A DNA stretch of 64,000 bases from contig CAIZFE010000004.1 in NCBI GenBank assembly GCA_903932145.1, positions 248,001 through 312,000 on the forward strand. Direction: 5' to 3'. A model generated the notes under the pieces. The model searched no databases and had not been told where the DNA came from. It saw only the letters and a program-made list of their open reading frames with translations. Position 1 is the stretch's first letter; the number at the start of each line of letters is the position of its first letter. A program made the translations under genes and the position numbers. Positions 1,763 through 53,893 of this stretch are shown in pieces. Source of the DNA: an uncultured Rhodopila sp. (GTDB lineage: Bacteria > Pseudomonadota > Alphaproteobacteria > Acetobacterales > Acetobacteraceae).

Positions 1763-3124
1763 ATGTCAGCAAGCACCGCGCGCTTCGCCTTTCCTGGTCG
1801 GTTTCGAGAAACCGCCAAACCGCATGTGACCGGCCTGTTGCTGGCCGGCGGCTGGCTGCATGGCGTGGCGGCCCGAATTGTCCCGGAATGGCAGGCGGGA
1901 GGCGACCTGTTGCCGGCCAGCCTCGTCAGTCCGCTGGAACTCATGATCGTCTTCATCGCCGGCTATGGACTGTCTCGCGAGCCTGTAGCGGAACGGTTGG
2001 GCCTGGCGACGTTCGGTTTTGTGGCACTTCTGCTGGTGCCGAGTGCCCTGGTGACCCATGCCGCACTGATGGCGTTCGCGATCCTGGTTGCGATGCGCTG
2101 CCACGGGCGGTCTCGGGTCTCGGCCTTGCTGTTCGCCGGACTGGGCGCCTGCGGCTTGTGGGGTGCGCTGTATGACCGGCTGGCGGGCGGCTATCCGTTA
2201 CAGGCCGATGCCGCCGTGGTTCAGGTCCTGCTTGGGTCGGTGCTGCCGCATGTGGAGCGCGTCGGCAACATCGTCGGCGTCGCCGGCGGGCATCGGATCG
2301 TTATTCTGCCCGGCTGCTCGACCCTGTTTGCCTTGCCGCTCGCGCTGCTGGGACTTGTCGCGCTGGCGTCGCGCGGGCCGCGTTTGCCACCCCGGCTCGG
2401 CCGAGCGGTGATGGCGCTGGTGGGGATGTATGCCGTGGCGAACTGGCTTCGGCTCACGCTGCTGGCGATCTCGGCCGAGTGGTACCGTGTGGGTCATGGG
2501 CCCTATGGGGCGATGCTGTTCGACGCACTGGCGGTCGCGTTGCCGCTGGCAGTCGCCGGACGTTTGCATGTGGAGGCCGAGCCGGCGTGTGACGAGACCC
2601 CACGTCGCGCTGCTCCGGTTGGCCGGCTGCTGCCCGCGGTGCTGATCGGGCTGCTGACGATCGGCCTGGGTGTGAAATTCGCCCGTCTGGGTGAACCGCC
2701 AGCACCGTCGCACGAAGCGCGGGCTCAGGCGGCATTGGTGGCGTTTATGGCGCAGGAGGGCTGGTCGGTTGTTGCGCGGGATGGGCTGACCCGCGGCGGA
2801 GCGACCGTTGTTCAGTCGTTCGGCCGTGCCGGTTGTCCGGGCCGTCTCTCGGTCGCCTTGGCCACGCGGGCGCCAGAGGCCGAAACGATGCTGCGGCAGG
2901 CTCTCGGCGGCAATGTTCGCTGGCTGGAGGCAGGCACACTGTATCAGGAACCGCCGATCGGACAGCAAGCATGGCGGGCCATGCTGGCGGCGGGGGTGGC
3001 TCGCCTGGGGGGCGCTGCCGACCGGGTCATGCCGATCCTGGCGATCCGATTGCCCGAGGTCGGAGCTGGTGCCTGCTCGGGACCGCCGGATCAGGCGTGG
3101 CAGAGGCTGGTGGCGTTACCCTGA
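1763..3124 (+). CDS. Exosortase/archaeosortase family transpeptidase
   Basis: A 453-residue integral membrane protein with about eight hydrophobic segments in its first 290 residues. The three residues expected of the exosortase catalytic site are all present in the right order: Cys185 in 'LPGCSTLFA', Arg230 in 'ANWLRLTLL' and His245 in 'RVGHGPYGAMLFD'. After a last membrane helix (about 290-310) a soluble domain of some 140 residues follows, in the position where EpsI-type domains are fused in other exosortases; I cannot assign it firmly. By family, the enzyme would cleave and re-anchor proteins bearing a PEP-CTERM-like tail. The divergent neighbour has such a tail, so it is the likely dedicated substrate. 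The ATG at 1763 was preferred because upstream in-frame starts add a non-hydrophobic, Arg/Cys-rich leader lying in the shared promoter region. Confidence 0.8.
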   Translation: MSASTARFAFPGRFRETAKPHVTGLLLAGGWLHGVAARIVPEWQAGGDLLPASLVSPLELMIVFIAGYGLSREPVAERLGLATFGFVALLLVPSALVTHAALMAFAILVAMRCHGRSRVSALLFAGLGACGLWGALYDRLAGGYPLQADAAVVQVLLGSVLPHVERVGNIVGVAGGHRIVILPGCSTLFALPLALLGLVALASRGPRLPPRLGRAVMALVGMYAVANWLRLTLLAISAEWYRVGHGPYGAMLFDALAVALPLAVAGRLHVEAEPACDETPRRAAPVGRLLPAVLIGLLTIGLGVKFARLGEPPAPSHEARAQAALVAFMAQEGWSVVARDGLTRGGATVVQSFGRAGCPGRLSVALATRAPEAETMLRQALGGNVRWLEAGTLYQEPPIGQQAWRAMLAAGVARLGGAADRVMPILAIRLPEVGAGACSGPPDQAWQRLVALP

Positions 3125-3315
3125 TCGGGCGGAACGGGGAAAACAGGTCAACAGGTGGCGCGCGTAGAAAATAGGGTCGGCACAATTTGGAGGCACAATC
3201 ATATTTATCTCTAATTATCATATATTTACATAATTCTAAATACCCATTTAGGCGATTGGGCTGGCGCCGTATCGATGAGTATTGCTTATTTCGCAAATTC
3301 ACATATAAAGGCGGG
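3125..3315. other. AT-rich intergenic stretch
   Basis: No gene is seen here. From about 3183 to 3330 the base composition falls sharply compared with everything around it, with runs such as 'atatttatctctaattatca'. It precedes the lytic transglycosylase gene and may hold its promoter or a site for a nucleoid protein; no single promoter can be picked with confidence. Confidence 0.5.
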
Positions 3316-4932
3316 ATGATAGTTCGAAAGCCAACCATGGACCGCCGGTTCGTGGCGGCAATATTCTTATATATCTCAGCGTTTTTGGTCGTCATTTCGC
3401 CCAATCGTGCGCGCGGACAGGATATTCGCGCACCCGAAGACGAAATCGCCTTCTCGGTTCCACGAATGGGCCTCCTGGGCGCCAGTTACGTCGGCTTGCC
3501 GCAGCCACTGCACCCTGGCGATGTGGCCCGCGTGCGTCGTGTTTTCACGCTTCAGGCGGCCGGCGCGATGGATGAGGCCGCCCGGGAGGCCTCTAAGGTT
3601 GAATCGCCACTCGTCACGGGCGCCATACAGGCGGATCGGTATTTGCGTGGACCGAGAACCCCGGAGGAGTCATCGATCGCGGACTGGCTCGTGCATTTCG
3701 GCGACCAGTCGGATGCGTCGGCGATGCGCGCTTTAGGCCGCCGTTCGACCGAGGAAATACTGCATCGAGGCGTTAAGAACGCCGTCACTGGGGGGGCGAA
3801 AGTCGATCGATCCCGTGCGCGCGGCTTATTCATTGCAAACCGCGATGCCGAACTCACGGCAGCATTTCGGGCCGAACAAACAAACGGCACGACGTCCGAT
3901 GCCCGGATGGCGGGTGGTTTGGCCGCATGGCGGCAACGGGATGCGGCGGCTGCGCTGGACTTATTCGAATCATCCTATCGCATTGCCACGGACGACCAGG
4001 ACCGAGCGACAGCGGCGTTTTGGGCAGCACGGGCGAGCGATCGTTTGGGGAATCGGCAGGCGGCCGTTGTGTGGCTTCGACGCGCGGGCCACGAGCACAC
4101 GACGTTTTACGGGGTGATCGCCCGGCGTCAGCTCGAAACGCGCATGGCCGGTCTATTTCTTCGGCCGGGCGGTGAGACCGTTGGTAATGCCGAGGTTATC
4201 AGCGTCATGGCGACAGAGGGTGGCCGGCGCGCCTTCGCGCTTTTACAGGTCGGGCAGATTCGGCGGGCTGCTATCGAACTCCGCAATCTGTGCCTCGATC
4301 CAGACGCATCGCCTCACCAGCGGCACGCCACGCTGCTTTTGGCCCGTGCCGCCGGGTTTTCCGAACTCATTGAGGACCCTCAACTCACGAACATGGCGCG
4401 CACCTCCGCCGCAATACCGGTGCCCAGCCTACACTCGGACGGTGGATTCCTGGTTGATCCACCGCTGATTTATGCGGTGGTAAGGCACGAATCAAATTTT
4501 CATACCGACGTGGTTTCCTCGGCTGGCGCCCGTGGGTTGATGCAGATCATGCCTGCGACGGCGCGTGCGGTCGGGGCGATGACGCGTATCCCGGCAACCC
4601 ACTTGCACGACCCTGCGGTCAATCTCGCGCTCGGCCAGCAGTATCTTTTGCTTTTGTCCAACGACGACGCCATTAGCGGCAACCTGTTGCGGGTCCTTGC
4701 AGCCTATGCGCAGGGATTGAGTGGAATGAAGCGTTGGGTGGACGCCGTACGCGATGATGGCGATCCGTTCCTGTTCCTGGAAGCTATGCCAAACTTGGCA
4801 ACAAAAGCATTTATCGAGGACACTTTGATGCATTCCTGGCGCTACGCCTCGGCGATGCAACGGGCCGCCGCCAGTTTGGATGATTTGGCTGCGTTTCGAT
4901 ATCCCGGCCTGGTACAAGCTGCCGGGGGCTGA
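3316..4932 (+). CDS. Soluble lytic murein transglycosylase (SLT family)
   Basis: A 538-residue periplasmic enzyme that would cleave peptidoglycan glycan strands with formation of 1,6-anhydro-muramic acid. Residues 9-34 form a signal peptide. A long alpha-helical, Ala/Arg-rich region (about 100-350) resembles the superhelical U and L domains of Slt70-type enzymes. The catalytic SLT domain lies at about 375-500: Glu392 in 'YAVVRHESNF' is the acid/base, followed by the family motif 'GARGLMQIMPATA' and the later 'AAYAQG' block. The ATG at 3316 is chosen because AAGG precedes it; ATG 3337 is an alternative. It sits next to an O-acylation cluster, which may link wall turnover and acylation. Confidence 0.88.
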   Translation: MIVRKPTMDRRFVAAIFLYISAFLVVISPNRARGQDIRAPEDEIAFSVPRMGLLGASYVGLPQPLHPGDVARVRRVFTLQAAGAMDEAAREASKVESPLVTGAIQADRYLRGPRTPEESSIADWLVHFGDQSDASAMRALGRRSTEEILHRGVKNAVTGGAKVDRSRARGLFIANRDAELTAAFRAEQTNGTTSDARMAGGLAAWRQRDAAAALDLFESSYRIATDDQDRATAAFWAARASDRLGNRQAAVVWLRRAGHEHTTFYGVIARRQLETRMAGLFLRPGGETVGNAEVISVMATEGGRRAFALLQVGQIRRAAIELRNLCLDPDASPHQRHATLLLARAAGFSELIEDPQLTNMARTSAAIPVPSLHSDGGFLVDPPLIYAVVRHESNFHTDVVSSAGARGLMQIMPATARAVGAMTRIPATHLHDPAVNLALGQQYLLLLSNDDAISGNLLRVLAAYAQGLSGMKRWVDAVRDDGDPFLFLEAMPNLATKAFIEDTLMHSWRYASAMQRAAASLDDLAAFRYPGLVQAAGG

Positions 4933-47426: not shown

Positions 47427-50400
47427 TTACACCGCATCCAGTGAAACCTCCAGTGCCCGGCTGATCTCCTGGACCGTCGCGGGAGCGTCGAAACGAAATA
47501 GCGGGCTGAGGCCGCGTTCGATCCGCGAGGCGCGAATGGCCGACTTCACAGCGAAGAAGACGGAAGCGGCCATGACAAGCGGCGGTTCACCAACTTCCTT
47601 CGATGACAGGATGCCGCCGTTCGGGTCCGGCGGAACCTCAGGCACGGACTCCCGCGGGAACAGATAAGTGTTCATTTCCAATGGGATGCTGGAAGCTGCC
47701 GGCGGTTTGTAGGTCCAGGTATTGAGCGTGTTCAACCGGCCGGCTTCGTCGCCAGCCGACTCGGTAACGAGCATTTCGGTCATGACGTAGCCGATGCCCT
47801 GCACGAACGCCCCCTCAACCTGGCCGATGTCCAAGGCAGGGTTCAGTGACCACCCCATGTCGTACACAAGGTCCGACGACAGGATTTTCGTTTCTCCCGT
47901 AAGGATATCGACTTCAACCGTCGCACAGGCGCCTGAATAGGTGAAACCGACGAAATTATCGAACTCGCCCGGGACACCGTGCCCCGCGGTGTAGCCAGGA
48001 ATGCTGGGCTGTTCGTCGAAGGGCTTGTAAATCAGGGCCGGGGACTGGGTTTCGCCGCCGCGGATCACAGCCGTGTATGCGGCGGTGAGTGGAACACGAT
48101 TATTATAGGCAAGGGAAATCAGATTCTGCCACATCATTTTGGTCTGGCCGTATACTTCGACCTTAGTCTGCCAGCCAGTGGCCGGATAATCCCAGAAGTT
48201 GATTCCAGCCGTCTCGCATGCTTGCGGTCCATTCTCCGCGCGGTATTCGTTTGCGAACCCAATCAACCGCGTCCGCATTTGGCTACACAACCGCTTCACC
48301 GCTTCGGCATTATAGGGCGTGCCCGTCGAGCCACCCGTGCTGGTGGGATTTGGAATGACAGCGGTGCGCGCGGCGATGATCTCGATCATATCCATGGGCA
48401 TGTTCAGTATGTAGGCAGCCACCTGCCGGATATAGGTCAGCAATCCCTGCCCCATCTCGACGCCGCCCTGGTGGATGACGATGCTGCCGTCGTTGGCATA
48501 AATCGAAATGGTCGCATTTGCCTGTTCCAGCATCGTGACGTTGTAGCCGGAGCCGTATTTGACCGGCAGCATCGCGATACCGCGCTTACGCCAACGATTT
48601 TTTCTGTTGTAGTCCTGAACCTCTTTGTAACGGATTTCGAACCGGGATTTTTCCTTCAAATAATTCCAGACCTGACCCATATAGCAATACGACAGCGCCT
48701 GACCGAAGGGGGTTACATCGCCGCGCTGGTACAGGTTTTTCTCGCGGACGTCTTCCGGCCGCATGCCAATGGAAATGGCGGCGTCATCGAGCGCGTTTTC
48801 GATGATCAATGTGCCCTGGATGTCACCAAACGCCCGGAAGGCGGTGTTCGGGGCGGTGTTGGTGCGGCAGACATCGATCTGGTTTTCGAAATTGCGAACC
48901 GTGTAGGCGTTGTCGGCGCGGGTCTGGATGCAGTTTGAAACAATATAACTACAGTCATAGAACGCGCCGCCGTCACCCCACATCCGGTTCCAAAGGCCGT
49001 GAATGGTGCCTTTGTCGCCGGGGTCTTGTTCGCTGCCGGTGCCGATGGCGATCTGGTAACTGCCGTAATAGGCGTGCCGCTTGCCGATCATCGCGGTATC
49101 CTGCTCACGAGTCAGCACCAGCCGAACCGGCAGTTTCATGGCGCGGGCAGCGATAGCGGCGGCGGCGGTGACGAAGCGTGCCTGCTCGGTCTTTCCACCG
49201 AAGCCACCACCCACGGGCGGGACCTGAACCTCGATCGTGTTATATTGCGCACCCAGCGCCATAGCCGTGCTCTGATGCATTTCCATGGGGCTTTGCGTGG
49301 ATGGGCGCATCATCATCCGGCGGCCATCCAGCGGTTCGGCGATGGCGGCCTGCGTTTCCATGTAAAAATGAGCCTGGCCACCGGCGGTCTGGGTATTGCT
49401 GACGATCAGACACGGGGTGTTGCCAACGGCCCCCTGTTGGACGCCTGGAACCGGGTCGAGCGGATCCCGATCTGATTGTGTCCAATCGAAACGGCTGCCG
49501 GGGCGGGTGACCTTCCATATATGCCCGTACCACAAAGCACTTGTGGGAAAGTCCGGGAAAACGCTGCCCTTACTGATCGCATCCCGCAATGACAGAACAG
49601 GCTTGCTCCACCATTCGGGATCATCGGGTTGCGGCGCGATCATGCTATAAGCGACGCAATGATCGGACACATATTGCGCGATCGTTGCTGCCTGCTGCTC
49701 GGTATCGGCCGCAATCAGTGCCAGGGACTGACCTACATAATCGACTTTGTCATACGGTGCGAAAACGGGCTGGTCCGCACCCATGCCCTGCAGGTTTATG
49801 CCGCCATCCGGAATATTTTTCGCGGTAATGACGTCAACAAATCCCTGAAAGCGGGCAGCCAGCCTGACACGGAGCGCGCCGGTTTCGATGGTCCCCGTCG
49901 TACCAGGCCACTGAAATGACCACGTAACCACGGCGCGTTTGCTCTGCACCAGTGATGCGTTGACGGTCTTCGGCGGCACGGGGAGTTCATGCGTATAGTG
50001 CAACTGGCCCTGCGCCTGCTCCATGGCTGTCGTCTTGATGAAGGGCAGAGAAACCGGCGCTTTCCAGAGCTGGTTGCTGTAGAACTGCTTGCCGGTGCTG
50101 ACGGGCCACCGGCCCCAGGTAATATCGCCGCTTGAGGCAATTGCGGCGGGAACCGGCGCTTCCCGTGTATTCAAAGCGTTGATGACGGACTTGTAAAAAA
50201 ACGACAAAGCCAGGTGAGACTTATATTCGTTGGTGAACCCCTCATCCGGCAGGCCAGCCATCCGTGGCGCAACGCTGGCAAGTTCGGCAATGACTTCCTG
50301 TTGCAGCATCGCGACGTAGGCCGGAGCGTCTGTCAATGTCAGCGCCTTGCCGCGCATGGCTGCCTCGGTCCGGGTGGCACGCCACGGGTACGGGGCGATA

Positions 50401-52043
50401 CCACCGAAGACCAGGACCGCGTCCTGAACGACGAGATCGTCACCCATGACCAGCCGGCTCGTTGCATTAACGATGCTATGAGCGTTGACTTCGCGCAGGG
50501 CCACCTTTTGCGGAAACAGCATGTCGGCCTTGTCACCACATGGCAGTTGGAAGCGAAGCAGTATCAGGGCCGCCTGTAGCGACGGATCGCTCACGCAGGC
50601 ATTGATCAGATCCTGTATTTTGAAAGTGGCGGCAGTATCGGTTCTGGTATCAATGATATCGACCGTTGCGTCTATGGCGACGAGCGCTGTTGCCACGTCG
50701 GACGGGAAGGGTTCCCCTGTGCCGGCGACGATATGGGACAGCACCAGCATTAAGTTGCCACCCAGCGTCGCGGCATTGCGCACGATGTGGCCTGCGGTGC
50801 GGCGAAGCATGAAATCCACCGCCCCAAGACGGGTCAGCGCGGTTTGAATGGGCTGGCCGGCCGGACCTTGAGGGGTTTCGCCTCTATCGGTCATGACCTT
50901 GTTAACCAGGTCGATCAGGCTTGTGTAAATGATACCGGCCGCTACGGTTATGCTTTCGTCACTGACCACGGGCGCTGCGTGGAGTTCGGGCACATGGCTC
51001 AGGTTAATCAAAACCGTATCGACTAAATATTGTTCTTTATAAATGCCGAACCCGGTATTCGCCTGCACCAGGCGCATTGCCTCACCCTGGTGGGCGCGCA
51101 TCTGGGCCACGAGTTCCACCAGGGTCGTAGGCGACAACCAAAGTTGATGTCCGTGCCGGATATTGGCGCCGGTTGGGGGACGTCTGGCGCGAACCGGAAA
51201 AGGGATGATGAGGTCGGAGGTGGGGCGTTGGGCTTCATCGTCGGGATCGGGCAAACACTGCATCTGGTCGATATCGTCGGCGGGCGTCCAGTCGGATGCG
51301 AACTTTTTCATGCCCGTCAGGATGGATCGGTAACCGGTGCACCGGCACAGATTGCCGTCCAACGCGTCTTCGATTTCCCGCTTCGTCGCGTTGGGGTTGG
51401 TGGAAATGAAGGCGGACATATTCATAACGAAGCCAACAGTGCAGTAGCCGCATTGCGTGCCATTGTTCATCGCGAGCCGCCAGGCAACCGGATTCATGCC
51501 CTCGTTGAACATTTCCGAAGGCGACGTGGGCAGGTCGTCACGCAGGCGAACACTCAGTCCATTGCCGCTCGGGTTTGCCAGAATCGCGTCTTTTACGCTT
51601 TGAAGGACCTGTTCGCGTTTCGCGGAGGCCTCTTCTCGGGCTTTGACTACGCCGGGCGGCGGCGGCGCATCGATGGCCACACCCTGGCGGCTGGATGTTT
51701 GGGTATGGGTCAGGTTTGCCGGATTGGGCTTGCGCACGGATCCGGTGCCTTCGATCGTGGTCACGTTCATCCCATTCAGCGCGACGACCGGCCGCAAGCA
51801 GGCATTAATGGCTCGATGGTCGGCCTGATCCGTGTCGCGGTTCCATTCCGACAGAATGACGGTGCAGCCGCCGCAGCCGCCTTGACCGCAAGGCTTCTTC
51901 GGCCCGGAAAGGGCGATTTCAGGCGAGCGTAAAAAGTCGATCAGCAGCATGTCCGGAGATGGTTCGTGCAGGTCCACCCTCTGGCCATTGAGGAAAAAAT
52001 GAATGCTGTTGGCCTTATCCATATCTTGAACGAAATGGGACAT
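47427..52043 (-). CDS. Single-chain molybdenum hydroxylase (xanthine dehydrogenase/aldehyde oxidase type)
   Basis: A 1538-residue protein joining all three parts of a molybdenum hydroxylase. First a plant-type [2Fe-2S] domain (C52, C57, C60, C82 in 'PCGQGGCGGC' and 'NACLRP'), then the second [2Fe-2S] domain ('TQCGYCTVGF', 'GNLCRCTGYRS'), an FAD domain ('ANTGFGIYKEQYLV'), and the large molybdopterin part with 'GGGFGGKTEQ', 'GGVEMGQGLLTYI' and active-site Glu1486 in 'KEVGEPPLVMAA'. Bacterial enzymes are usually two or three separate subunits; the one-chain form is typical of eukaryotes. It is about 200 residues longer than eukaryotic xanthine dehydrogenase, partly through an insert between the two iron-sulfur domains. 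No XdhC-type maturation gene is adjacent. Substrate unknown. Confidence 0.9.
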   Translation of the reverse strand: MSHFVQDMDKANSIHFFLNGQRVDLHEPSPDMLLIDFLRSPEIALSGPKKPCGQGGCGGCTVILSEWNRDTDQADHRAINACLRPVVALNGMNVTTIEGTGSVRKPNPANLTHTQTSSRQGVAIDAPPPPGVVKAREEASAKREQVLQSVKDAILANPSGNGLSVRLRDDLPTSPSEMFNEGMNPVAWRLAMNNGTQCGYCTVGFVMNMSAFISTNPNATKREIEDALDGNLCRCTGYRSILTGMKKFASDWTPADDIDQMQCLPDPDDEAQRPTSDLIIPFPVRARRPPTGANIRHGHQLWLSPTTLVELVAQMRAHQGEAMRLVQANTGFGIYKEQYLVDTVLINLSHVPELHAAPVVSDESITVAAGIIYTSLIDLVNKVMTDRGETPQGPAGQPIQTALTRLGAVDFMLRRTAGHIVRNAATLGGNLMLVLSHIVAGTGEPFPSDVATALVAIDATVDIIDTRTDTAATFKIQDLINACVSDPSLQAALILLRFQLPCGDKADMLFPQKVALREVNAHSIVNATSRLVMGDDLVVQDAVLVFGGIAPYPWRATRTEAAMRGKALTLTDAPAYVAMLQQEVIAELASVAPRMAGLPDEGFTNEYKSHLALSFFYKSVINALNTREAPVPAAIASSGDITWGRWPVSTGKQFYSNQLWKAPVSLPFIKTTAMEQAQGQLHYTHELPVPPKTVNASLVQSKRAVVTWSFQWPGTTGTIETGALRVRLAARFQGFVDVITAKNIPDGGINLQGMGADQPVFAPYDKVDYVGQSLALIAADTEQQAATIAQYVSDHCVAYSMIAPQPDDPEWWSKPVLSLRDAISKGSVFPDFPTSALWYGHIWKVTRPGSRFDWTQSDRDPLDPVPGVQQGAVGNTPCLIVSNTQTAGGQAHFYMETQAAIAEPLDGRRMMMRPSTQSPMEMHQSTAMALGAQYNTIEVQVPPVGGGFGGKTEQARFVTAAAAIAARAMKLPVRLVLTREQDTAMIGKRHAYYGSYQIAIGTGSEQDPGDKGTIHGLWNRMWGDGGAFYDCSYIVSNCIQTRADNAYTVRNFENQIDVCRTNTAPNTAFRAFGDIQGTLIIENALDDAAISIGMRPEDVREKNLYQRGDVTPFGQALSYCYMGQVWNYLKEKSRFEIRYKEVQDYNRKNRWRKRGIAMLPVKYGSGYNVTMLEQANATISIYANDGSIVIHQGGVEMGQGLLTYIRQVAAYILNMPMDMIEIIAARTAVIPNPTSTGGSTGTPYNAEAVKRLCSQMRTRLIGFANEYRAENGPQACETAGINFWDYPATGWQTKVEVYGQTKMMWQNLISLAYNNRVPLTAAYTAVIRGGETQSPALIYKPFDEQPSIPGYTAGHGVPGEFDNFVGFTYSGACATVEVDILTGETKILSSDLVYDMGWSLNPALDIGQVEGAFVQGIGYVMTEMLVTESAGDEAGRLNTLNTWTYKPPAASSIPLEMNTYLFPRESVPEVPPDPNGGILSSKEVGEPPLVMAASVFFAVKSAIRASRIERGLSPLFRFDAPATVQEISRALEVSLDAV

Positions 52044-52281
52044 TGCTACGGTCTCCCTTCCAGGTACTCTTTGCATCGCCGTATCGGCAGCGTTCCGGCA
52101 GCGCGCGGCGTGAGCCAGAACGTTAACATACCGAGTTTGTTAAAGATACGGATACAACCGGTCAAGAGGGAAGTTCACGGGTTCCCGGAAAAGCTGTGGT
52201 TGGGCAATGCATATGCCGGGTATCTGGACTGGCTGGACGAATCCGCAACCATACGGTGGGTGCGGGAACTCGACTGACCCC

Positions 52282-52803
52282 TCACACCCCCAACAAAATC
52301 CCCAACGCCTGCCGATACGCGACCTCCGCCCGAGCCTTCAGCTCCGGCGTGGTGCAACTGCCGATCGGATGCTGGACCTTCATGAACGGATAGTCCGCCA
52401 GACCCATAATCTTCGCGATATTCTTCGCCGTCACCTCAAACGGTTCCGTCGTCAGTACTACCGCCCGCTTACCCAGTTGTTCAAAACTAATGCCGTCGTG
52501 CAGACTGCACGTTGAGCACGAGCCTCAATCACCCAGGCCGGTGATGAGAAAATCCACCTCCCGCGCGGCCTGAGCCAATGTCTCCGCCGGAGCGGGCGCG
52601 CTGGCGTTCGACTTCGAATAAATCGGGCGAACGATGCACCCATGCCGCTGCACAAACAGGTCGGCGACCTCCCGCAACATTTCCACGGCGTTCAGCTTGC
52701 CGTTCTCCAGAATGCCGATGGTCTTGCCGTCCAACGAATCAAGCGCCGGCGCTCGGAACACATGCCGCTCCGGACCGGACGACGTCGGATCATACAGTTG
52801 CAT
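52282..52803 (-). CDS. UGSC family selenoprotein (UGA read as selenocysteine)
   Basis: A 173-residue protein if the UGA at 52525-52527 is read as selenocysteine. Before it: 'MQLYDPTSSGPERHVF', 'LDGKTIGILENGKLNAVEML' and 'EVDFLITGLGD'. After it: Sec-G-S-C-S-T-C-S-L-H-D-G, then 'RAVVLTTEPFEVTAKNIAKI' and 'HPIGSCTTPELKARAEVAY', ending at TGA 52282-52284. The frame stays open for 81 codons past the UGA with normal codon use, and the Sec-Gly-Ser-Cys motif defines the UGSC family, which is known in Sec and Cys forms. A hairpin of SECIS type follows the UGA. The start has a strong AGGAGG site that contains the stop codon of the upstream gene. Function unknown; a redox reaction at the Sec/Cys pair is likely. 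Confidence 0.87.
52497..52511 (-). promoter_or_regulatory. Bacterial SECIS-like hairpin
   Basis: On the mRNA the sequence CGTGCA-GTC-TGCACG forms a six-pair stem with a three-base loop starting with G, 13 bases after the UGA. The upper part of the E. coli fdhF SECIS, as I recall it, has nearly the same stem (TGCA / TGCA) with a GGTC loop at almost the same distance. SelB would bind here to deliver Sec-tRNA. Confidence 0.75.
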
Positions 52804-52816
52804 AGACACCCCCTCC

Positions 52817-53893
52817 TTAGTTGCAGTCGATGCAGACCCCGATGGGCTTGTGCTGCATGATGGCCCCCCGGCCACGGCTCCATGACGGAATAAAGCACGA
52901 GTGGCCGCCAGCGTCACCGCCACCCATGGTGATCAGGATGTCATCAGGGGTCAAGCCACGATGCACGAATCCGGCCTCGGCCAAAGGATGCGCCTCCGGA
53001 CCGTGCTGCTTGTCGTATTCGACATCGCGGAATTTGCCGACGCCGCGCATCCCGTCCACCGACCGTTTGGCCTGGCTGAACAGGAACTCCTGCGCGTCCT
53101 TTCGGCTCCACCCCGCCGCCGCGAGGATGCTCATATGCTCGGGCGCCAGGATCACGACGCTTTCGCCCAGCGTGATGCAGCCATAGTTGGCCATGGCGTC
53201 GGCCACCGACCCAAGCACCTGTTGCGGCGTGTTGCCACCATGGTTCTCCACGTTGCAGAACCCGCCGCCGGCGAAGACGGTGACGCTGGAGACGCCGGCC
53301 GGATAATCCTGTGTCTCGCACAGCATCGGCCACGGATTCCCCCGCACCCGCTCGGCGATACAAAAACTGTATTTCCCGGGGTTGCCCTGGGTGGATTTGT
53401 CGGAGATCCCCGGGATCATCTGAAAGACGTTCCGCAGGATCAGCCGTGTCGCGCGCCCGATCGTCGCGTTCGCCCGGTTGCCCGGCCCGAACAGGTTGAC
53501 GTCGGCGTTCATGCCGATCATCTCGGCATAGGGGCCGCTGACGATCAGCAACGGCGCCGAACCGCCGGTGCTGGCGGTCGAGCCGTGGAAGTTGAAGGCC
53601 GGCTTGTCCATCGCCTCGAACGCCGCGACCACGACCGGGAAATACTCCGGCAGGCAACCGGCCATCACCGCGTTCACCGCCGCGGCGTGCACCGTCAGTT
53701 GCAGGCCCGTGGCGGGGTGGGTGGCGATGACAGCCTCGGCCGGACGACCCTCATACAGCAGCATCGCCTGCACCCGGTCCACGACCGGGGGAATCACCGG
53801 CAAACCGTCGGTCCAACCCTGTTCGTAACAATAATCGATCGCGGCGAGGAGATCGTCCGGGACGTCGTGGATGCGGTAGGAATCGAGTGGCAT
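52817..53893 (-). CDS. Conserved protein of unknown function, partner of the UGSC selenoprotein
   Basis: A 358-residue protein that I cannot assign to an enzyme class. Notable parts are 'YCYEQGWTDGLPVIPPV' near the N-terminus, the Gly/Asn-rich 'GPGNRANATIGRATRLIL', 'TVFAGGGFCNVENHGGN', 'ITMGGGDAGGHSCFIPSW' and the C-terminal 'GVCIDCN' with a Cys-x-x-Cys. Several Cys and His residues could bind a metal or take part in thiol chemistry with the selenoprotein. The two genes are 13 bases apart. No signal peptide is seen. Confidence 0.75.
   Translation of the reverse strand: MPLDSYRIHDVPDDLLAAIDYCYEQGWTDGLPVIPPVVDRVQAMLLYEGRPAEAVIATHPATGLQLTVHAAAVNAVMAGCLPEYFPVVVAAFEAMDKPAFNFHGSTASTGGSAPLLIVSGPYAEMIGMNADVNLFGPGNRANATIGRATRLILRNVFQMIPGISDKSTQGNPGKYSFCIAERVRGNPWPMLCETQDYPAGVSSVTVFAGGGFCNVENHGGNTPQQVLGSVADAMANYGCITLGESVVILAPEHMSILAAAGWSRKDAQEFLFSQAKRSVDGMRGVGKFRDVEYDKQHGPEAHPLAEAGFVHRGLTPDDILITMGGGDAGGHSCFIPSWSRGRGAIMQHKPIGVCIDCN

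What the first reader, a model, noticed from the sequence alone, without database searches (positions are those of the whole stretch)
52282..52803. A UGA-containing selenoprotein gene of the UGSC family
The frame from ATG 52803 meets UGA at 52525 and then stays open for 81 codons of coding quality, beginning Gly-Ser-Cys-Ser-Thr-Cys. The UGA sits exactly where the family has Sec or Cys. Standard annotation would stop at UGA and lose the redox centre and the whole C-terminal half. The strong ribosome site and tight spacing to the partner gene argue against a decayed gene.
Basis: partly seen in the sequence, partly recalled or inferred. Interest (0 to 1): 0.9.

Follow-up and report, generated by a model that had tools for sequence, protein, structure and literature searches.

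The report
UGSC selenoprotein with conserved partner
The gene very probably makes a selenocysteine-containing protein of a known but uncharacterised family, read through an internal UGA codon, and it sits beside a conserved partner gene with which it may form a small reductase.

Summary
Confirmed. Minus strand 52803-52282 is one 173-codon gene with an in-frame UGA at 52527-52525. Read as Sec, the product belongs to the UGSC family (Pfam PF24696, 156 bits; each half matches alone). The genome has tRNA-Sec, selA, selB, selD and two more UGA-bearing UGSC genes. In the 42 related genes I took apart (of 47 matches), the only internal stop is a UGA in one column. A hairpin just after the UGA (five core pairs, apical G) is kept in 42 of 42 Sec forms but in 14 of 47 Cys forms. 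The family has been in print since 2008, so this is a new member. Less documented: the gene lies beside a partner family without Pfam or NCBIfam model in 41 of 42 Sec loci and 46 of 46 named Cys loci, and three annotated proteins fuse the two; with a deep alignment it is a distant relative of PrdB/GrdB, selenoprotein subunits of D-proline and glycine reductase (hhalign P 2.4e-6; best of 74 decoys 0.007); its predicted model is not thioredoxin-like; thioredoxin reductase genes recur near it in some other genomes, not here. Best reading: Sec subunit of a two-protein, thioredoxin-fed reductase of unknown substrate. Sec decoding near certain; the enzyme reading about even.

The parts
52282..52803 (-). 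UGSC-family selenoprotein gene, 173 codons plus stop, Sec at codon 93
52525..52527 (-). in-frame UGA read as selenocysteine
   Evidence: UGA in 42 of 42 genes taken apart
52497..52511 (-). hairpin after the UGA (six pairs in the window, loop GUC, apical G at 52505), putative bacterial SECIS element
52812..52817 (-). AGGAGG ribosome-binding site, 8 nt before the ATG
   Evidence: read from the sequence
52817..53893 (-). conserved partner gene, 358 codons, no Pfam or NCBIfam family, 13 nt upstream of the selenoprotein gene

Best explanation
Shown by sequence: a UGSC-family selenoprotein gene with an in-frame UGA, a hairpin directly 3' of it, and a complete Sec system in the genome; decoding as Sec is inferred from these, with near certainty. 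Shown by comparative genomics: it forms a two-gene module with the partner just upstream. Inferred: the Sec, which the model puts at the N-terminus of a helix in an alpha/beta domain and which is followed by Cys in a U-x-x-C motif, attacks or reduces a small organic substrate held by or at the partner protein; the resulting selenenylsulfide is re-reduced by the thioredoxin system (NADPH, thioredoxin reductase, thioredoxin or a fused thioredoxin-like domain), by analogy with GrdB/GrdE and PrdB/PrdA. Likelihoods: Sec decoding about 0.97; two-protein module about 0.9; thioredoxin-fed reductase of the PrdB/GrdB kind about 0.5; substrate unknown.
For: Family: PF24696 156 bits against cut-off 25. 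Machinery: tRNA-Sec 71.8 bits, anticodon TCA, selA 554.8, selB 409.5, selD 300.4 bits, each over its cut-off. Of 59 genomes, selA over cut-off in 23 of 26 with UGSC and 7 of 33 without. UGA as sole internal stop in 42 of 42 genes taken apart, of 47 rows. Hairpin: five core pairs in 42 of 42 Sec against 14 of 47 Cys sites, apical G 42 of 42 against 23 of 47; one pair C-G in 35, G-C in 7; Ser in the loop is AGT in 30 of 30 genes with Ser there, while AGT is 12 of 179 Ser codons in four neighbouring genes. selB-like genes near UGSC in 4 of 87 sources: L084, L086, L088 (cut by the contig end), L142 (a Cys form). Partner: 41 of 42 loci, 46 of 46 named Cys loci, all 4 copies of the own genome beside its 3 UGSC genes; 27 of 59 genomes have it, 26 of them with UGSC and the 27th, G030, with a cut UGSC-like match beside it. 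Single annotated proteins fuse both in Sporomusa, Vibrio europaeus and Variovorax boronicumulans. PrdB/GrdB: hhalign P 2.4e-6, probability 89%, Sec on Sec/Cys. Thioredoxin: trxB-trxA-partner-UGSC in Arthrobacter, partner-UGSC-trxB in Roseovarius, trxB-like genes in 14 of 87 sources, 0 of 56 control loci.
Against: NCBIfam NF041046 scores 117, under its cut-off 125. selA not found in G004, G026 and G045, which carry UGA forms; drafts, but G026 is rated 100% complete. Hairpin: the number of pairs with double changes (2; shuffles 1.7) and of pair types (4; shuffles 4.6) do not exceed shuffles; these columns also encode conserved residues, and Trp, which the G-C pair brings, is also common in Cys forms. 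The window has no trxB hit; 6 of the 14 trxB-like hits are 29-35% identical, and of 6 scanned 3 pass the TRX_reduct cut-off; the control is small (224 kb against 797 kb) and unmatched. With shallower alignments the PrdB/GrdB link was P 0.009-0.034, level with decoys and shuffles. The partner shows no likeness to PrdA or a GrdE-like protein (P 0.5-0.8). One of 24 plasmid records, Haladaptatus, has a partner without UGSC within 4 kb. Some UGSC-like domains lack Sec and Cys. The CoA-transferase upstream was not found beside the closest orthologues.
Confidence: 0.8

Rival explanations
1. A UGSC selenoprotein that is a general thiol-disulfide oxidoreductase or peroxidase with a thioredoxin-like fold, as the literature assumes, acting without the partner in catalysis.
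For: UxxC motif; papers call it likely Trx-like.
Against: Model (pLDDT 88, pTM 0.83) strictly alternates strands and helices, unlike the Trx fold as I recall it; of 1771 PDB matches the 50 listed include flavodoxin and lumazine synthase and no thioredoxin; close pairing and fusion with the partner.
Confidence: 0.15
2. The UGA is a stop: a 92-residue protein is made and the rest is a decaying or separate reading frame.
For: Without Sec decoding the frame ends there; Paracoccus annotation shows two CDS.
Against: Purifying selection after the UGA, fixed UGA column, Sec machinery, hairpin, Cys forms that run through.
Confidence: 0.02
3. The UGA is read as another residue (suppressor tRNA or code change).
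For: None found.
Against: tRNA-Sec with anticodon TCA present; Cys in the same column in relatives; UGA is also the final stop here.
Confidence: 0.01

Closest known systems
UGSC family (Pfam PF24696; NCBIfam NF041046; 'UGSC-containing protein' of PMC2398784, 2008)
   Same: Sequence over the whole length, U-G-S-C motif, UGA, Sec machinery
   Different: Ordinary member; NCBIfam score 117 just under cut-off 125
PrdB / GrdB selenoprotein subunits (Pfam PF07355)
   Same: Distant profile similarity with Sec on Sec and UxxC in register; paired with a second subunit; thioredoxin genes beside it in some genomes, as in clostridial grd operons (PMC10880999, passages)
   Different: Pfam does not assign it there; shorter; the partner shows no likeness to PrdA or a GrdE-like protein; GrdA, GrdC and GrdD not looked for
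UGSC/Unknown_1 fusion (PMC2398784, Fig. S1A, figure not seen)
   Same: A UGSC domain fused to a conserved domain of unknown function, which may be the partner described here
   Different: Identity could not be checked; the supplement was not available

Membership tests
UGSC family (PF24696) | Profile match over Pfam gathering score | tested here: met
   156.4 bits, cut-off 25
UGSC family (NF041046) | NCBIfam equivalog cut-off | tested here: not met
   117 bits, cut-off 125, E 6.9e-34, residues 25-169
Bacterial selenoprotein | In-frame UGA aligned with Cys of homologues | tested here: met
Bacterial selenoprotein | selA, selB, selC, selD in the genome | tested here: met
Bacterial selenoprotein | SECIS-like hairpin just 3' of UGA with apical G | tested here: met
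   function untested; two of five measures do not exceed shuffles
Bacterial selenoprotein | Sec shown in the protein | not testable with these tools
   needs 75Se label or mass spectrometry
PrdB/GrdB (PF07355) | Pfam PF07355 match | tested here: not met
   only PF24696 reported up to E 10
PrdB/GrdB (PF07355) | Distant profile homology with Sec in register | tested here: met
   deep alignment P 2.4e-6; best of 74 decoys 0.007, best of 100 shuffles 0.028; shallow alignments level with decoys
PrdB/GrdB (PF07355) | Partner related to PrdA or GrdE (pyruvoyl proprotein) | tested here: not met
   P 0.5-0.8 against 3 PrdA and 1 GrdE-like protein
Thioredoxin-like fold | Trx topology | tested here: not met
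   predicted model only

The most novel reading that the evidence does not exclude
UGSC and its unnamed partner are the two subunits of an undescribed, thioredoxin-fed selenoenzyme: a PrdB/GrdB-like redox subunit joined to a substrate subunit of a different family, used by diverse bacteria and haloarchaea (Sec or Cys form) to cleave or reduce small organic acids, outside the anaerobic amino-acid fermentation in which such enzymes are known.
Probability: 0.4. Interest if true: 0.75.

Novelty: new member of a known kind. Interest (0 to 1): 0.45.

Why it matters
UGSC is among the more abundant selenoprotein families in ocean metagenomes (PMC2398784, passages seen) and its function is described as uncharacterised (PMC13188914, passages seen). 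The partner, the PrdB/GrdB kinship and the thioredoxin gene links make its function directly testable, and speak against the thioredoxin-like fold assumed in print. The gene also shows how annotation can split such genes.

Tried and rejected
Partner as PrdA or GrdE relative: no support. Partner by fold: PDB matches weak (best M. jannaschii fumarate hydratase chain, E 4.3e-4, TM about 0.25), not used. Solved structures by sequence: nothing credible for either protein. CoA-transferase and xanthine-dehydrogenase-like neighbours as part of the module: no hit near the five closest orthologues (CoA-transferases do occur in 9 of the 86 loci). The open stretch after the UGA as evidence by itself: rejected, about 15% by chance. 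Thioredoxin-domain fusions in the partner: in 24 of 46 named loci the partner hit spans 1,344 nt or more, that is, includes the N-terminal extension, but domain scores are under cut-off, so only suggestive. Decoy families for hhalign were built from open frames of at least 100 aa in the loci and include antisense frames; part of the PrdB/GrdB signal is the shared CxxC.

Full report
Observation. The frame 52803-52282 (minus) contains one internal stop, TGA at 52527-52525, and then 80 sense codons to TGA at 52284-52282. AGGAGG lies 8 nt before the ATG, and 13 nt separate the upstream gene's stop from it. An 80-codon open stretch after a stop is not unusual in this 62% G+C window: 402 of 2648. 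The case therefore rests on comparison.

Family. The 173-residue product with UGA as Sec matches Pfam UGSC (PF24696) with 156 bits over 3-170; the parts before and after the UGA match alone with 62 and 73 bits. NCBIfam UGSC gives 117 bits, slightly under its cut-off of 125. The family is in print since 2008: 255 Sec and 21 Cys sequences in ocean metagenomes, UxxC motif, 'likely' Trx-like fold (PMC2398784, passages seen); a 2026 review lists it among Trx-fold selenoproteins of uncharacterised function (PMC13188914, passages). A 2020 paper lists it in algae (PMC7539508, passages). PMC9312934, PMC5029168 and PMC5330540 mention it briefly (passages).

Machinery. The window's own genome (6.66 Mb, 115 contigs, rated 100% complete) has tRNA-Sec, 71.8 bits, anticodon TCA, 22 bases after the end of the selA match and on the same contig as the window; selA, selB and selD each pass their cut-offs. 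In 59 genomes including the own, selA passes its cut-off in 23 of 26 with UGSC and in 7 of 33 without (my tally). The three exceptions, G004, G026 and G045, are drafts of 670, 920 and 80 contigs; G026 is rated 100% complete, so they count against, weakly.

Conservation. One search lists 47 UGSC matches in 26 of 59 genomes; 46 hold one TGA, and one partial match lies wholly after the Sec site. I took 42 of these 47 apart: each has exactly one internal stop, TGA, in one alignment column (the frame of L087 was mis-started and set right in 26). Five matches were not fetched. The own genome has three such genes. A search of 398 genomes of the phylum gave nine rows in five genomes: six have TGA at the Sec site (three of them the own genome's; the window copy seen here as L021), G199 has Cys, and G333 gives two rows of one gene with Cys at the site, a broken frame and a TGA elsewhere. 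Among six orthologues (the window's and five at 79-86% identity), pN/pS after the UGA is 0.085-0.268 and before it 0.182-0.396. Cys forms exist in bacteria and haloarchaea (46 loci); that scan looked for Cys codons, so it gives no ratio. Two named plasmids carry UGA forms (Paracoccus ferrooxidans, Acidovorax sp. T1); in the first the gene is annotated as two hypothetical proteins split at the UGA, with selA and selB within 8 kb. Distant UGSC-like domains can lack Sec and Cys: Met in Sporomusa and Vibrio europaeus, Ala in G004:C52 and G025:C113.

Hairpin. After the UGA, columns 17-21 pair with 27-31 in 42 of 42 Sec forms, with a G at column 23, the first or second base of the apical loop; in 47 Cys-form sites the five pairs are all present in 14 and the G in 23. 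RNAalifold finds the same stem. One pair is C-G in 35 and G-C in 7 sequences, a double change that goes with Cys to Trp and Leu to Phe; Trp is common there in Cys forms too (19 of 47 sites, pair kept in 11; my count), so the change need not have been made for the stem. Over the 39 distinct rows, 92.3% of cells of an eight-pair stem pair, against 84.8% in shuffles and at most 48% when slid, and the covariation score beats all 500 shuffles; the number of pairs with double changes (2 against 1.7) and of pair types (4 against 4.6) does not. Where the loop codon is Ser it is AGT, 30 of 30 (the other 12 have TGT), while AGT is 12 of 179 Ser codons in four neighbouring genes.

Partner. The 358-residue gene just upstream has no Pfam or NCBIfam family; its 46 aligned members give only weak Trx-type and chance matches. 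Relatives lie within about 0.8 kb of UGSC in 41 of 42 loci (the exception, L080, is a 4.1-kb contig) and in 46 of 46 named Cys-form loci; the four copies in the own genome all lie beside its three UGSC genes. Of 59 genomes 27 have it: the 26 with UGSC, and G030, where a UGSC-like match cut by the contig end lies next to it. Among 24 plasmid records with a partner relative, UGSC was found by tblastn in 10; in 13 of the other 14 the profile finds a UGSC-like domain beside or fused to the partner, and only Haladaptatus lacks one within 4 kb. Single annotated proteins join both in Sporomusa, Vibrio europaeus and Variovorax boronicumulans. Where annotated, plasmid records call the partner a hypothetical protein. 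The GOS paper's 'Unknown_1' may be the same; I could not see that figure.

Kinship with PrdB/GrdB. With my first alignments hhalign gave only P 0.009-0.034, about level with the best of 74 decoys (P 0.019, score up to 25.2) and below the best shuffle score (27.2). With 95 UGSC sequences against PrdB of four Firmicutes, one Roseomonas protein and 14 PrdB-like proteins of relatives, P is 2.4e-6, score 46.5, probability 89%, Sec on Sec/Cys; the best of 74 decoys is 0.007 (score 29) and of 100 column shuffles 0.028 (score 21). Against the four PrdB alone P is 4e-5. The decoys include antisense frames, and the shared CxxC is part of the signal. The partner shows no likeness to PrdA or a GrdE-like protein (P 0.5-0.8). 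AlphaFold models UGSC with confidence (pLDDT 88) as alternating strands and helices, Sec just before helix 94-108; the 50 listed of 1771 PDB matches include flavodoxin and lumazine synthase and no thioredoxin, with modest TM-scores.

Thioredoxin link. Arthrobacter sp. ERGS1:01 has trxB-trxA-partner-UGSC in a row, Roseovarius sp. THAF8 partner-UGSC-trxB, Variovorax sp. SRS16 trxB close by; of the 15 annotated plasmid stretches opened for UGSC or partner, 4 name a trxB, one of them about 9 kb away. trxB-like genes occur in 14 of 87 sources searched (8 at 50% identity or more, 4 of these Methylobacterium) and trxA in 2; of six scanned, three pass the NCBIfam TrxB cut-off. Control loci of 224 kb gave none; that control is small and unmatched. 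The window itself has none. Clostridial grd operons also hold trxA and trxB for their selenoenzyme (PMC10880999, passages), and a GrdB/GrdE-like pair is proposed to cleave fluoroacetate (PMC10838667, passages). This is the ground for the inferred mechanism; substrate and catalysis are untested.

Verdict. It is a new member of a known family; its worth lies in the testable idea that UGSC and its unnamed partner form a thioredoxin-fed reductase. I saw no statement of the partner module or of the PrdB/GrdB link in the listings of searches and the passages read; they cover open-licence papers only, and I read none of them whole.

Noticed in passing
L091 (G000:C98), 1453-2619: The same genome holds a PrdB-like (PF07355) gene with an in-frame TGA in a UPLC motif, and a Cys form (L092) elsewhere; of 31 such loci read, 16 are TGA and 15 Cys forms.
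   Followed up: partly
L181 (Paracoccus ferrooxidans plasmid pFER4): One plasmid stretch of 18 kb carries selA, selB, a UGA-form UGSC gene, its partner, trxB and sulfur-transfer genes: a possible movable Sec set.
   Followed up: partly
L183 6314-7993; L195 3371-4990; L204 2700-4301; L205 2708-4318: UGSC-like domains with Met or Ala in place of Sec, fused to or beside partner relatives: perhaps a structural or differently acting branch.
   Followed up: partly
L203 (G004:C533), 2207-3874: A divergent UGSC-like domain with a stop codon in the Sec place of the GSC motif, directly followed by a partner relative; G004 showed no selA.
   Followed up: no
L176, 8995-9810: Arthrobacter UGSC protein has a C-terminal NifU-like domain (Pfam 27.2 bits, cut-off 27).
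   Followed up: no
L126, 3275-6583: Conexibacter has two Cys-form UGSC genes side by side, flanked by two partner relatives.
   Followed up: no
47427-52076, minus strand: 1549-residue single-chain molybdenum hydroxylase with about 100 residues between the two [2Fe-2S] domain halves, longer than I recall for xanthine dehydrogenase.
   Followed up: no
L002 (G000:C96:20072-20157): A second match to the tRNA-Sec model just over its cut-off (48.7, cut-off 47); perhaps another long-arm tRNA.
   Followed up: no
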